Shown here piece after piece: positions 7,469 through 11,178 of a stretch of DNA of 64,000 bases; within the stretch, counting starts at the first letter, position 1; every line of letters starts with the position of its first letter. Made by a program: the position numbers and the translations under genes. A model generated the notes under the pieces. That model saw only the letters and a program-made list of their open reading frames with translations. It did not search any database and had not been told where the DNA came from. The stretch comes from a marine gamma proteobacterium HTCC2080 (GTDB lineage: Bacteria > Pseudomonadota > Gammaproteobacteria > Pseudomonadales > Halieaceae). The stretch is from contig AAVV01000003.1 in NCBI GenBank assembly GCA_000169115.1, forward strand, positions 124,001 to 188,000, given 5' to 3'.

Positions 7469-8719
7469 ATGGGACACCTTCACAATCGGAACATCATCAT
7501 CGGTGTCACAGGCGGCATTGCTGCCTACAAAATCGCCGAATTAACCCGCCTGCTACGAGGTGATGGTGCGGCGGTACGCATCATTATGTCCCGAGGCGCA
7601 CAGGCCTTCATAACTCCCCTCACCTTACAATCACTATCTGGGCACCCAATCCACACCGAACTTCTCGATGAAACCGCTGAAATGGGCATGGGGCATATTG
7701 AGCTAGCACGCTGGGCCGATGCTTTTCTCGTAGCCCCCGCGACGGCCGACGCGGTCGCCAGGCTTGCTGCAGGACGCGCAGATGACCTGCTAACTACAGC
7801 CGCCTTAGCGACCCCGGCACCGCTGTTTGTCGCCCCCGCCATGAATCAACAAATGTGGAACAACCCCGCAACGTCAGCAAATATTCAGACCCTCATAAAT
7901 CGCGGCGTAAACATCATTGGCCCTGGTGCTGGCGATCAAGCCTGTGGTGATGTCGGTCCCGGCAGGCTGACAGAGCCCGTAGATATTAGCGCTAAAATTA
8001 ATGCCCACTTTCCCAATCGAGCATTGGAGGGCAAACGGGTTGTTATTACGGCAGGCCCCACGCGGGAACCCTTGGACCCGGTGCGGTATATATCAAATCA
8101 CAGTTCCGGAAAAATGGGCTTTGCTCTTGCTAAGGCTGCGGCTGAAGCAGGCGCGGAAACTATTTTGATTGCTGGTCCGGTTATGCTCAGTACCCCCGAG
8201 GGCGTTACCCGTTTGAATGTAGAGACCGCGGGGCAGATGCATGAAGCTTGTATAGAGCAGATCCATAAACCCACAGATGTATTTATTGGTAGCGCTGCGG
8301 TCGCAGACTACCGAGCAGAGTTCAGCGCACCACAGAAGATAAAAAAAGTGGGCGATACGCTAAACTTAAATCTGATCAGAAACCCAGATATCATCACTGA
8401 AGTAGCCAAATCCAAACATCGCCCAACAGTGGTTGTAGGATTTGCTGCCGAAACTGAGCATCTGGTAGAGCATGCAGAAGCTAAGCGTGTCGCCAAAGGG
8501 CTTGATGTCGTTGTTGCAAATGATGTCAGTCGAGCCGACATAGGCTTTAACAGCGACGCCAATATGGTGACCTGGCTAGATAACATCGGGCGCGAAGTTA
8601 TACCCTTAACCACGAAGCAGAACCTGGCAAAGCTTTTAATGATGCGGTGTAGTAAGCGCCTGTCACCGACAAGCGATAATGACGAGAAAATGGCAACGCA
8701 ACTGGAGGGCGACCGTTGA
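7469..8719 (+). CDS. coaBC: bifunctional phosphopantothenoylcysteine decarboxylase / phosphopantothenate-cysteine ligase
   Basis: A 416-residue flavoprotein fusion performing steps two and three of CoA synthesis. The N-terminal CoaC half shows VTGGIAAYK (13-21), catalytic His76 in GHIELARWAD, the PAMNQQMW motif (123-130) and the substrate-flap Cys159 in DQACG. The C-terminal CoaB half starts near 190 with ITAGPTREPLDPVRYISN and contains the VVANDVSR motif. The stop overlaps the TTG start of the following AlgC-like gene. The dut gene, which sits between coaBC and algC in Pseudomonas, is absent here. Confidence 0.96.
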   Translation: MGHLHNRNIIIGVTGGIAAYKIAELTRLLRGDGAAVRIIMSRGAQAFITPLTLQSLSGHPIHTELLDETAEMGMGHIELARWADAFLVAPATADAVARLAAGRADDLLTTAALATPAPLFVAPAMNQQMWNNPATSANIQTLINRGVNIIGPGAGDQACGDVGPGRLTEPVDISAKINAHFPNRALEGKRVVITAGPTREPLDPVRYISNHSSGKMGFALAKAAAEAGAETILIAGPVMLSTPEGVTRLNVETAGQMHEACIEQIHKPTDVFIGSAAVADYRAEFSAPQKIKKVGDTLNLNLIRNPDIITEVAKSKHRPTVVVGFAAETEHLVEHAEAKRVAKGLDVVVANDVSRADIGFNSDANMVTWLDNIGREVIPLTTKQNLAKLLMMRCSKRLSPTSDNDEKMATQLEGDR

Positions 8720-11178
8720 GCGCCGAGCAAAAGGGCCAAAAAGACGGAGAAGTTGTTAGTGAAGGTGACAGCCTAAGAAGGCTGCTTTATCGCGCAGGTC
8801 TTATCGCTCTTGCACCGGCTTTACTCGCATTTTTTTGGCTAGGCTTAATTCGAGAACCACTGATTCAATCAGGTACCGCCACTAGCCTCGCGCAAGCCAC
8901 TGTTGAAAGCCGTGCTGATATGGTGGGTCTGTATATAAAAGACCTTGAGTTACGCATTGATGTGCTCACGCTCCAGCTGGACAAACCGACCGAATCCCAG
9001 GATTTGACTTACGCCACGTTAAGCTTCCCTGATGCAGATGCCATCTCATTTATTCCCCTAGACGACTTGGGAACCGTCAGTATCAGCCCGGGAGATTATG
9101 GTTTGCGCTCCCATATCGATATCGATATCGTTCGCCGCGCCTTTGGCGGGGAAGATCCTGCACCAGAATTTGTTGTTGTTGACGATGAGGCATACACACT
9201 GTTTGCTCGGGGGATAGGCAGCCCCGTCAAAGGTGTTTTTATCGTTGAGGTCAGTCAACGTCGGCTGAAAAAACTGATTACACCCGGTAGTGAAGGGCAA
9301 TATCGCATTGTTCAGGAGCTACCTGGCGCCGGTAACGATACGGTTGTTGGAACTTTGCGCGATGAACCCCTAGTTCATGCTGATGTTACGGGCACGCTCT
9401 GGAAAGTAGAATTCGCCCCTAACCCAGAGTGGCTCTCCGCTGCCCAGCCCAGTTGGTGGGGGCTTATTATCTCGGTAATCATTGCCCTCGCCGGAATTTT
9501 ATCGGGCTTTTATCTGCTCATTCAACAATCAGAGCAGCTGTTGAAAGTAGAGATCCGACGGATACTTGAAGCTGCCGAGCTGCGGACGCCACTTCGGGTT
9601 ACGGTGCCGGCCTTGACGCCGGTCGCAAAAATGCTGCGGCAGTTAAGTTTACTCAGTCGACGCCAGCTAGTACTCCAAGCTCGAAGAGAGGCAACACGGG
9701 AAGATTTAGGCGAAGTAGCCTCCAAAGGCCCAGATGTCCTGATGCCCGAACCTACTGAAGGCCAACAAGACCCAGACGAGCTGCTAGCTGACCATGAGCC
9801 GCAGCCCGATATCGATGAAATCCCCGTTCATATTTTCAGATCTGGAAGTATTCGGGGAGACGTGCAGACAGAGTTAACCGAGGCGCTTATAGAGAGCATT
9901 GGGCAAGCCTTAGCCGTTATGTGCGGCGACCGTAACATCCAAACTCTTGTCGTCGCTCACGACTCTCGTCCTAGCAGCAAACAAATCAGAACCGTTTTAG
10001 TCAAAGCCCTGTTAGCGAGTGGCCGCGATGTTATTGATGTCGGCGAGATACCCACCCCCGCATTTTACTTTGCCACCCACGAGACTGATACCGATTCAGG
10101 AATCATGATCACCGGCGGCCACGGCGGTGAGCAGTTCAATGGTTTCAAAATTGTCTTCCACAGAAAGTTGCTGTCCGGGGTAGGAATTGAAGAGATTCTT
10201 GCAACGATTCGCTCGAGGAAAACGACGCAAGGCTCGGGTCGTACGATTCGATCCCGTATTGAAGCAGACTATATCGATCGCATCGCCATGGATGTCTCAT
10301 TGGCACTACCATTAAAGGTGGTCGTTGATAACGACTTCGGAACAGCCGCTCGAATCACCACACCGCTGCTCGAAGCACTGGACTGTGACCTAGTAAGCCT
10401 CAACTCCCCAGAAGAAGGCCCGCGCCCAACCGAACGCACACTCGAGACGGCTCTGGAATCTTTGGGAGAGCAGGTAAGAGCGGAGAGCGCAGACCTTGGG
10501 GTTCTTTTCGATAGTGACGGGGATCGACTTTACACCGTGACAGAAGCCGGTGTAGCTGTAGGCAACGACTTACTGTTGATGTTATTTGCAAGAGATATGC
10601 TCGAGCGCAATCCCGGCGCCGATGTGGTTTATGACATTCAATGCACTCGGCAATTCGCGCCTTTTGTAACTCGGGCCGGAGGCAGAGCGCAAATGTCACG
10701 CTCTGGTCAGGCTTTTATTCAAGAAAAGATGCTGCAAGCAGAAGCACTTTTAGCTGGGGATTTAGCGGGTCACCTATTTTTTGCAGAGCGCTGGTACGGC
10801 TTTGACGATGCGCCATATGCCATGGCACGCTTGTTAGAGATTCTTGCCACGGCAAGCTCCGGGTTTGGAGACATTGTTGCAGCATTGCCTCAGTCAAGGA
10901 GCACCCCCGCAATTCATATAGCATTGGAAAGCAAAATCCGTAAAAAAATAATGCGTGCCCTGGTGAGCAATGCCGATTTCCCGGGAGCCCGAATCACAAC
11001 GTTGGATGGTCTTCGTGTCGACTATGCCGATGGCTGGGGTCTTGTCCATAACTCAACCACCGAGTCAGCGCTATCCCTCCGCTTTGAGGGGAACGATGAC
11101 GCGAGCCTAGAGCGTGTCAAAGGGGTTTTACGAAAAGCCATCGCTGACGCAGAACCCAGCATCGACTTGCCCTTCTGA
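8716..11178 (+). CDS. membrane-anchored AlgC-like phosphohexomutase-fold protein, probably catalytically inactive
   Basis: An 820-residue protein at the algC position (coaBC-algC-argB). Residues about 23-43 and 247-269 are membrane segments enclosing a region of about 200 residues likely to be extracytoplasmic; 277-370 is a charged linker. From 372 the phosphomannomutase/phosphoglucomutase fold follows AlgC to the end. Active-site comparison with AlgC as I recall it: the phosphoserine loop TGSHNP is TGGHGG (466-471; Ser to Gly468); the HHPDP loop is lost (PRPTER, 569-574); the Lys/His pair in WKTGH becomes SRSGQ (661-665); GEMSGH becomes GDLAGH (681-686); the phosphate-loop Arg is His778. The metal loop DSDGDR (599-604) and ERWYGFDD remain. 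TTG start, preceded by GGAGGG and overlapping the coaBC stop. The fold assignment is firm; loss of mutase activity is inferred. Confidence 0.85.
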   Translation: MSAEQKGQKDGEVVSEGDSLRRLLYRAGLIALAPALLAFFWLGLIREPLIQSGTATSLAQATVESRADMVGLYIKDLELRIDVLTLQLDKPTESQDLTYATLSFPDADAISFIPLDDLGTVSISPGDYGLRSHIDIDIVRRAFGGEDPAPEFVVVDDEAYTLFARGIGSPVKGVFIVEVSQRRLKKLITPGSEGQYRIVQELPGAGNDTVVGTLRDEPLVHADVTGTLWKVEFAPNPEWLSAAQPSWWGLIISVIIALAGILSGFYLLIQQSEQLLKVEIRRILEAAELRTPLRVTVPALTPVAKMLRQLSLLSRRQLVLQARREATREDLGEVASKGPDVLMPEPTEGQQDPDELLADHEPQPDIDEIPVHIFRSGSIRGDVQTELTEALIESIGQALAVMCGDRNIQTLVVAHDSRPSSKQIRTVLVKALLASGRDVIDVGEIPTPAFYFATHETDTDSGIMITGGHGGEQFNGFKIVFHRKLLSGVGIEEILATIRSRKTTQGSGRTIRSRIEADYIDRIAMDVSLALPLKVVVDNDFGTAARITTPLLEALDCDLVSLNSPEEGPRPTERTLETALESLGEQVRAESADLGVLFDSDGDRLYTVTEAGVAVGNDLLLMLFARDMLERNPGADVVYDIQCTRQFAPFVTRAGGRAQMSRSGQAFIQEKMLQAEALLAGDLAGHLFFAERWYGFDDAPYAMARLLEILATASSGFGDIVAALPQSRSTPAIHIALESKIRKKIMRALVSNADFPGARITTLDGLRVDYADGWGLVHNSTTESALSLRFEGNDDASLERVKGVLRKAIADAEPSIDLPF

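What the first reader, a model, noticed from the sequence alone, without database searches (positions are those of the whole stretch)
8716..11178. Membrane-anchored AlgC homologue that has lost the phosphoserine and most catalytic loops
Seen: at the canonical algC locus (coaBC-algC-argB) the encoded protein has about 370 extra N-terminal residues with two membrane segments, and its mutase fold carries TGGHGG at 466-471 where AlgC has TGSHNP. The Ser codon is GGC at 10117-10119. The HHPDP loop is gone, Lys/His of WKTGH are Arg/Gln, GEMSGH is GDLAGH, and the phosphate-loop Arg is His778. The DSDGDR metal loop and ERWYGFDD sugar loop survive. Known: the phospho-Ser is essential in the alpha-D-phosphohexomutase superfamily. 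Inference: a conserved-fold pseudoenzyme, possibly a sugar-phosphate-sensing module tied to an extracytoplasmic sensor. The open frame is intact over 2.4 kb and the scaffold is well conserved, which argues against simple decay.
Basis: partly seen in the sequence, partly recalled or inferred. Interest (0 to 1): 0.85.

Follow-up and report, generated by a model that had tools for sequence, protein, structure and literature searches.

The report
Dead sugar-mutase on a membrane sensor
In one genus of bacteria, probably marine, a sensor-linked sugar-phosphate enzyme has lost its catalytic residues and yet is still kept by selection in a good part of the species, so it has probably become a non-catalytic signalling or scaffold protein.

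Summary
The 820-aa protein at 8716-11178 (coaBC-X-argB) is an AlgC-type mutase fold behind a two-helix membrane anchor; its catalytic Ser is Gly468 (GGC). It is neither sporadic nor an artefact: 18 of 57 genomes of the genus carry the gene, 18/18 lack the TxSHN loop and 17/18 lack Ser at that column. Outside relatives that I read keep it (28 of 28 family loci, 16 of 16 order loci, 80 of 80 named loci; the sets overlap a little). The 18 form one clade (support 1.0). The N-terminal extension is ancestral and models as a dCache-type periplasmic sensor. Selection persists (mutase dN/dS about 0.03 near the window, similar to ArgB; weaker in diverged lineages), but the active-site loops have lost their extra conservation and 11 of 18 copies have a changed metal loop. 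Two Ser-intact mutases (GlmM, CpsG-like) remain in the genome. 32 genus-mates lack the full gene; nine loci keep fossils. Best reading: a dCache receptor whose mutase domain became a non-catalytic, dispensable output or docking part. Sugar-phosphate sensing through the old site stays possible in the window's subclade. Partner and signal are unknown.

The parts
7469..8719 (+). coaBC, upstream neighbour; its stop overlaps the TTG start of the next gene (ttga at 8716-8719)
   Evidence: orthologue beside the gene or the empty site in relatives
8716..11178 (+). pseudo-AlgC: dCache-type sensor + inactive AlgC-like mutase domain, 820 aa
8770..8868 (+). residues 19-51, first membrane helix
   Evidence: AlphaFold2 models
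8863..9453 (+). residues about 50-246, periplasmic dCache-type sensor domain
   Evidence: VIA Z 12.2-14.6 in the 50 rows shown; 12 Foldseek matches at E <= 0.001; weak dCache_1 hits in 11 of 61 homologues, none in the window protein
9457..9582 (+). residues 248-289, second membrane helix
   Evidence: models
9607..9699 (+). residues 298-328, juxtamembrane helix; Q309, L310, R315 conserved in the pseudo clade and other residues in the family
9694..9813 (+). residues 327-366, disordered linker (segment with pLDDT under 50)
9832..11175 (+). residues 373-820, inactive phosphohexomutase fold (domains I-IV)
   Evidence: Pfam PGM_PMM_I-IV; TMt 0.91-0.96 to AlgC entries
10117..10119 (+). GGC, Gly468 at the position of catalytic Ser108
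10510..10527 (+). DSDGDR, retained metal-binding loop
11228..12109 (+). argB, downstream neighbour

Best explanation
A catalytically dead, membrane-anchored phosphohexomutase homologue. Shown by sequence or model: the ancestral protein was already a two-helix membrane protein with a dCache-type periplasmic domain joined by a disordered linker to an AlgC-type mutase. In this genus the phosphoserine loop was lost, most simply once in the common ancestor, while a CpsG-like mutase and GlmM stayed intact in the window's genome. The whole protein stayed under purifying selection although its active site lost its special constraint. Inferred: the periplasmic domain still senses a signal, and the cytoplasmic mutase fold now works without catalysis as an output or partner-binding scaffold, in the way GlmM's fold regulates the membrane cyclase CdaA/DacA or PGM5 serves as a structural protein. 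The function is accessory, because many genus-mates have lost the gene. The partner and the signal are not known.
For: 18 of 57 genus genomes carry it; 18/18 lack TxSHN. Outside relatives read keep Ser: 28 of 28 family loci, 16 of 16 order loci, 80 of 80 named loci. The 18 are one clade, support 1.0. Selection: window vs G031 mutase dN 0.017, dS 0.528, argB 0.030/0.486; mutase ratios with G065 and G073 about 0.03-0.04 (NG86), 0.044-0.046 for the three pairs by YN00. Active-site loops: intact pairs at 40-50% identity 0.756 loops vs 0.460 rest, pseudo pairs 0.438 vs 0.460. 57 sites conserved identically in pseudo clade and family; 35 reach 85% only in the pseudo clade, 22 of them with another residue commonest in the family. 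N-terminal domain models as dCache-type. GlmM and CpsG-like mutase with TASHNP in the same genome. Precedents: GlmM-CdaA structures (listed; PMC8573169 and PMC6368335, titles and abstract starts) and PGM5 (PMC7761743).
Against: No partner, ligand or phenotype is known. The disordered linker does not favour rigid signal transmission. Constraint is weaker in diverged lineages: mutase dN 0.195 vs argB 0.040 (G030-G006), 0.394 vs 0.115 (G027-G063), ratio about 0.12 in G027-G008, and even window-G033 0.157 vs 0.090. In the four diverged proteins scanned (L107, L108, L110, L130), Pfam domain I is below cut-off, II and IV are not reported, and L110 passes no cut-off at all. 32 genus-mates lack the full gene. 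In close pairs the N-terminal part evolves faster than the mutase part. Site counts carry no correction for relatedness.
Confidence: 0.55

Rival explanations
1. Sugar-phosphate sensor: the old active site still binds hexose phosphate with Mg without turnover, and binding is coupled to the periplasmic domain.
For: The window's subclade (7 of 7) keeps DxDGDR, H469, K478, R380, R604 and H686. S108C AlgC still binds G6P (KD 20 uM), G1P (198 uM) and X1P (11 uM) (PMC5509744, passages); an S108D-G16P complex is in the PDB (2fkm). In the 70-80% identity bin loops are slightly above the rest (0.812 vs 0.749; 9 pairs).
Against: Ligand positions Y17, K285, H308, E325, S327 and R421 are changed in the window (roles recalled). 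In the same bin intact pairs reach 0.903 (111 pairs), and in the 90-100% bin pseudo loops do not exceed the rest (0.923 vs 0.928; 7 pairs). One to three of the three metal Asp are changed in all 11 other copies. S108C weakens G16P binding (KD 839 uM).
Confidence: 0.2
2. Slow relic: catalysis became redundant to the CpsG-like mutase and the gene is on its way out; the remaining constraint is only against misfolding, or for coupling coaBC to argB.
For: 32 of 57 genomes show coaBC next to argB without the full gene; 9 of 33 such loci keep a fossil of its C-terminus, two of them with a stop inside. Carriers have larger genomes (median 2.97 vs 2.62 Mb after correction for completeness, p 0.0015, not corrected for relatedness). 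Faster evolution in diverged lineages.
Against: 17 of 18 copies have an open frame of 803-841 aa (the other is cut by a contig end) down to 23-25% identity to the window. dN/dS of about 0.03 in the window's group is like ArgB's. Sites conserved in the pseudo clade with another residue in the family exist.
Confidence: 0.2
3. Active enzyme with changed chemistry, for example phosphotransfer through His469 or through a neighbouring residue, in the window's subclade.
For: H469, the metal loop, K478 and R604 are invariant in 7 of 7 and the domain is strongly constrained.
Against: K285, H308, Y17 and R421 are changed in the window; H469 is kept in only 1 of the other 11 copies; no known phosphohexomutase works so (recalled).
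Confidence: 0.05

Closest known systems
AlgC PMM/PGM of Pseudomonas aeruginosa (1k35, 4il8, 2fkm) and its long, Ser-intact orthologues at coaBC-argB
   Same: Same fold (4il8: TMt 0.94, rmsd 2.0, 39% identity); same locus and N-terminal architecture in the family members read
   Different: No Ser108 and no TxSHN; Y17, K285, H308, E325, S327, R421 changed; extra loop constraint gone
PGM5 (aciculin), inactive vertebrate phosphoglucomutase homologue
   Same: Phosphohexomutase-fold pseudoenzyme kept for a non-metabolic role
   Different: PGM5 keeps its Ser (phosphorylated in the Baltic herring structure) and binds G1P (PMC7761743); here the Ser is gone and the protein is a bacterial membrane protein
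GlmM as inhibitor of the membrane diadenylate cyclase CdaA/DacA
   Same: A mutase fold acting as a protein-protein regulator at a membrane protein
   Different: GlmM is an enzyme and a separate protein; here the dead fold is fused to its own membrane sensor. No cyclase partner was looked for.
dCache-type receptors (Mlp37, PctA, McpU, KinD sensor domains; also the AHK4 sensor domain)
   Same: Membrane helix - double-PAS/dCache-type domain - membrane helix arrangement in the model
   Different: Output is a mutase fold rather than a methyl-accepting, kinase or cyclase domain

Membership tests
alpha-D-phosphohexomutase superfamily (fold) | four-domain PGM_PMM I-IV fold | tested here: met
   Pfam I-IV over cut-off for the window protein; TMt 0.91-0.96 to AlgC structures
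alpha-D-phosphohexomutase superfamily (active enzyme) | catalytic Ser in T-x-S-H-N | tested here: not met
   Gly468; 18/18 of the pseudo clade lack the motif, 17/18 lack Ser at the column (L130 has Ser in VVSRD); L089, L090 and L129 have a Ser one or two residues away
alpha-D-phosphohexomutase superfamily (active enzyme) | metal loop DxDxD | tested here: met
   DSDGDR in the window and DxDGDR in 7 of 7 of its subclade; changed in the other 11
alpha-D-phosphohexomutase superfamily (active enzyme) | phosphate-binding Arg of domain 4, and K285/H308 | tested here: not met
   His778, Gln642, Gln665 in the window
PMM/PGM equivalog families (NCBIfam PgmG, glmM, CpsG) | score over curated cut-off | tested here: not met
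   299.8 bits vs 600 for the best, PgmG; note that the genome's CpsG-like mutase also falls below its cut-off, 652.5 vs 801, while GlmM passes
dCache sensor proteins | dCache-type fold between two membrane helices | tested here: met
   model with VIA Z 12.2-14.6 to such domains
dCache sensor proteins | significant dCache Pfam match | tested here: inconclusive
   none in the window protein; 11 of 61 homologues weakly, best E 5.8e-4
phosphohexomutase pseudoenzyme | absence of mutase activity | not testable with these tools
   needs an assay

The most novel reading that the evidence does not exclude
A metabolic enzyme tethered to a dCache receptor has been converted, at genus level, into a dedicated non-catalytic signalling output: a new kind of one-component receptor whose effector is a dead phosphohexomutase, with living Ser-intact versions in sister genera as the ancestral state.
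Probability: 0.35. Interest if true: 0.75.

Novelty: new variant of a known kind. Interest (0 to 1): 0.6.

Why it matters
It offers a replicated natural experiment in how an enzyme becomes a pseudoenzyme: living Ser-intact orthologues in sister genera, a loss shared by one genus, different degrees of active-site erosion among its 18 copies, and several deletions with fossils. It also draws attention to a little-noticed architecture, a dCache-type sensor fused to an AlgC-type mutase, in many gammaproteobacteria: the P. aeruginosa PAS/Cache survey (PMC8694187, main text searched for five terms, 0 hits) does not name AlgC, and the Cache superfamily paper (PMC4822843, main text searched for 'mutase', 'AlgC', 'phosphoglucomutase', 0 hits) does not name such an output.

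Tried and rejected
Sequencing error or sporadic mutant: rejected, 17 further genomes share the loss. Horizontal origin: not suggested, the gene sits at coaBC-argB in the carriers and the copies form one clade. Ser moved nearby: not in the window's subclade, but L089, L090 and L129 have a Ser one or two residues from the column and L130 has one in it; whether any of these works cannot be told. Another mutase taking over at the same locus: none; the other two lie on other contigs.

Literature: 'phosphohexomutase'+'pseudoenzyme' gave 0 papers, 'phosphomannomutase'+'pseudoenzyme' 1 unrelated. Searches for a transmembrane or Cache-linked AlgC listed 20 of 31 and 12 of 128 papers, and no title there was on it; I did not open most of them. 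Only open-licence papers are held, so this is no proof of absence. An S108A search listed nothing useful.

Not done: a survey of the whole order for other Ser losses (outside the genus I read 28 loci of the family's 83 other genomes, 16 loci of 21 order genomes, and the best 80 of at least 584 named matches, a capped list); active-site geometry in the model (no coordinates at hand); a search for co-lost partner genes; a test for relaxed or shifted selection with codon models.

Rows dropped: L087 (cut by a contig end) was left out of pairwise identities and of the full-length alignment A2; L175, L176, L103 and L106 were left out of the 46-sequence intact set, but all four have the Ser. The sets overlap: L010 is L176, and L006/L156 and L008/L092 are alike in their last 400 aa. 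An earlier count said 18/18 lack Ser; the later count is 17/18 for the residue and 18/18 for the motif, and the report uses that.
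Full report
OBSERVATION. The frame 8716-11178 (+) encodes 820 aa from a TTG that overlaps the coaBC stop (ttga) and ends 49 bases before argB. Close relatives read Leu at the same position of their open frames. Residues 373-820 match all four PGM_PMM Pfam domains and 368-820 match AlgC of P. 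aeruginosa. The position of Ser108 is Gly468 (GGC).

IS IT REAL AND GENERAL? The window lies in a 3.58-Mb genome with three mutase-fold genes: this one, GlmM with TASHNP (after a folP-like gene, name recalled) and a CpsG-like 450-aa protein with TASHNP next to a galU-like gene (name recalled). In the genus (57 genomes held) a profile of 12 copies found 18 full or nearly full genes. None has the T-x-S-H-N loop; 17 of 18 have no Ser at the aligned column, and the eighteenth (L130) has one in VVSRD; L089, L090 and L129 have a Ser one or two residues away. One more genome (G075) has only the first ~100 residues, at a contig end. In 32 genomes coaBC lies next to argB without the full gene; with the second locus of G008 these are 33 loci, of which 9 still show the gene's C-terminus by tblastn (a 130-aa frame joining both ends in L185, a 49-aa frame in L186, and L190, L191, L198, L209, L217, L218, L220). 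Six genomes could not be decided. A tree of coaBC+argB (50 genus tips, 17 of them carriers) groups the genus (0.897) and has six separate all-absent clades; two of them (G072 and G008's second locus) share nearly the same spacer and may be one event. Outside the genus the Ser is intact in 28 of 28 family loci read (of 83 other family genomes), 16 of 16 order loci (of 21 genomes) and 80 of 80 named loci (the best 80 of at least 584). Elsewhere in the family the gene is missing between coaBC and argB in L181-L183 and L189. In the gene tree the 18 are one clade with support 1.0 and a long stem, 0.54, so the Ser was most simply lost once. The genus is probably the Luminiphilus group of the Halieaceae: contig G030 (2,724,358 bases) equals the reported 2,724.4 kb of strain JH123, which clusters with Luminiphilus and was proposed as Ca. 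Paraluminiphilus, and G078 (3,095,392) that of IMCC3088 (PMC10100682, passages). This is inference.

ARCHITECTURE. The extension is older than the loss: 55 of 80 named intact relatives have at least 200 open-frame residues before the mutase domain (open frames, some cut by contig ends), and the 26 intact family frames used are 833-1027 aa. AlphaFold2 gives a membrane helix (19-51), a mixed alpha/beta domain, a second membrane helix (248-289), a juxtamembrane helix (298-328), a disordered linker (327-366) and the mutase. The N-terminal model matches double-PAS/dCache-type sensor domains (VIA Z up to 14.6, rmsd 3.5 over 184 residues; Foldseek, whose first two rows are integrative models). Pfam sees dCache_1 weakly in 11 of 61 homologues and not in the window protein. 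The mutase part superposes on AlgC entries with TMt 0.91-0.96.

SELECTION. Within the window's group the mutase part has dN/dS of about 0.03 (0.017/0.528 with G031; 0.040/1.386 with G065; 0.056/1.491 with G073), the N-terminal part 0.08-0.13 and ArgB 0.03-0.06 (NG86; the last two dS are near saturation and the G065 argB is partial; YN00 gives 0.044-0.046 for the mutase). Elsewhere it is weaker: G027-G008 0.12 against 0.03 for ArgB; dN 0.195 vs 0.040 for G030-G006. The gene is not drifting in the window's group and is more relaxed in the diverged ones.

WHAT IS CONSTRAINED. Taking 78 loop sites and 370 other sites of the mutase, intact pairs at 40-50% identity have loops at 0.756 and the rest at 0.460 (501 pairs), while pseudo pairs have 0.438 and 0.460 (17 pairs); below 30% the loops are less alike than the rest (0.205 vs 0.282, 55 pairs); at 70-80% pseudo loops are slightly ahead (0.812 vs 0.749, 9 pairs) but behind intact ones (0.903, 111 pairs). 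The extra constraint of an active site has gone in the clade as a whole. Of sites at least 95% conserved in the 26 family sequences, 145 are not conserved at 85% in the pseudo clade, 130 of them in the mutase and 15 in the N-terminal part; 57 are conserved alike in both, 4 are fixed for a different residue, and 35 reach 85% only in the pseudo clade, 17 of them in the N-terminal part; 22 of the 35 have another commonest residue in the family, including Q309, L310 and R315 of the juxtamembrane helix. These counts carry no correction for relatedness. At equal mutase identity the N-terminal part is more alike in the pseudo clade than in intact pairs (0.366 vs 0.171 at 40-50%); part of this must be that the mutase itself changes faster there. 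In close pairs the N-terminal part still evolves faster. The window's subclade (7 sequences) keeps DxDGDR, H469, K478, R604 and H686 in 7 of 7; the other 11 have one to three of the three metal Asp changed.

MECHANISM. Shown: a sensor-linked mutase lost its catalytic loop in one clade and the whole protein stayed under selection. Inferred: the receptor is still useful and the dead fold is its output or docking surface. Precedents for a phosphohexomutase fold working as a protein-binding part are GlmM with the membrane cyclase CdaA/DacA (structures listed; PMC8573169 and PMC6368335, search listing) and PGM5 (PMC7761743, abstract, passages and section 3.6). Unlike PGM5, which keeps its Ser, here it is gone. 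That loss alone need not abolish ligand binding: AlgC S108C still binds G6P, G1P and X1P, though G16P weakly (PMC5509744, passages). The disordered linker speaks for tethering more than for rigid signal transmission. Redundancy may explain why the loss was tolerated: by my reading, 16 of the 18 carriers show a CpsG-like gene, the two without being 75% and 78% complete; among carriers its Ser was read in the window's genome (L002) only.

DISPENSABILITY. Genomes that lack the full gene are smaller (median 2.62 vs 2.97 Mb after correction for completeness; 32 vs 18 genomes; sizes rounded by the tool; p 0.0015, no correction for relatedness). The role is thus accessory.

VERDICT. A conserved, most likely catalytically dead AlgC on a dCache-type membrane receptor: a new variant of known kinds (pseudoenzyme; Cache receptor). 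That it lacks mutase activity I hold at about 0.9; that it acts as a non-catalytic output or scaffold at 0.55.

Noticed in passing
L193-L197, L200-L208, L210-L216, L219 (between coaBC and argB): A 23-base element TGCGGCATYYTCACATTGCSTTT occurs exactly once (no mismatch allowed) in 23 of 57 genus genomes and in none of the 18 carriers: in 22 it lies between coaBC and argB, and these 22 are the largest gene-less clade; in G028 it lies 52 bases upstream of argB, where coaBC was not found. The backwards control gave 0. It holds a GGCA-N9-TGCC dyad and, by eye, a possible -35 box: perhaps an argB promoter or operator gained after the deletion.
   Followed up: partly
L188 5165-5379 (G060): argB beside a full-length pseudo-AlgC is reduced to its first 36 and last 33 residues; an ArgB-like protein of 31% identity lies elsewhere in that genome.
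   Followed up: no
L185 2360-2729 (G058): Remnant frame of 130 aa joins model positions 3-56 and 764-830 of pseudo-AlgC, an internal deletion that left both ends.
   Followed up: partly
L220 and L124 (G008): One genome holds two coaBC-argB loci, one with and one without the gene: mixed bin or real polymorphism.
   Followed up: no
L209 (G035): coaBC appears broken (two separate matches, early stop) in this genome.
   Followed up: no
55 of 80 named loci L004-L083: Ser-intact AlgC with a long N-terminal open frame is widespread in gammaproteobacteria; the window's extension models as a dCache-type sensor, so a sensor-linked mutase seems common and little noticed.
   Followed up: partly
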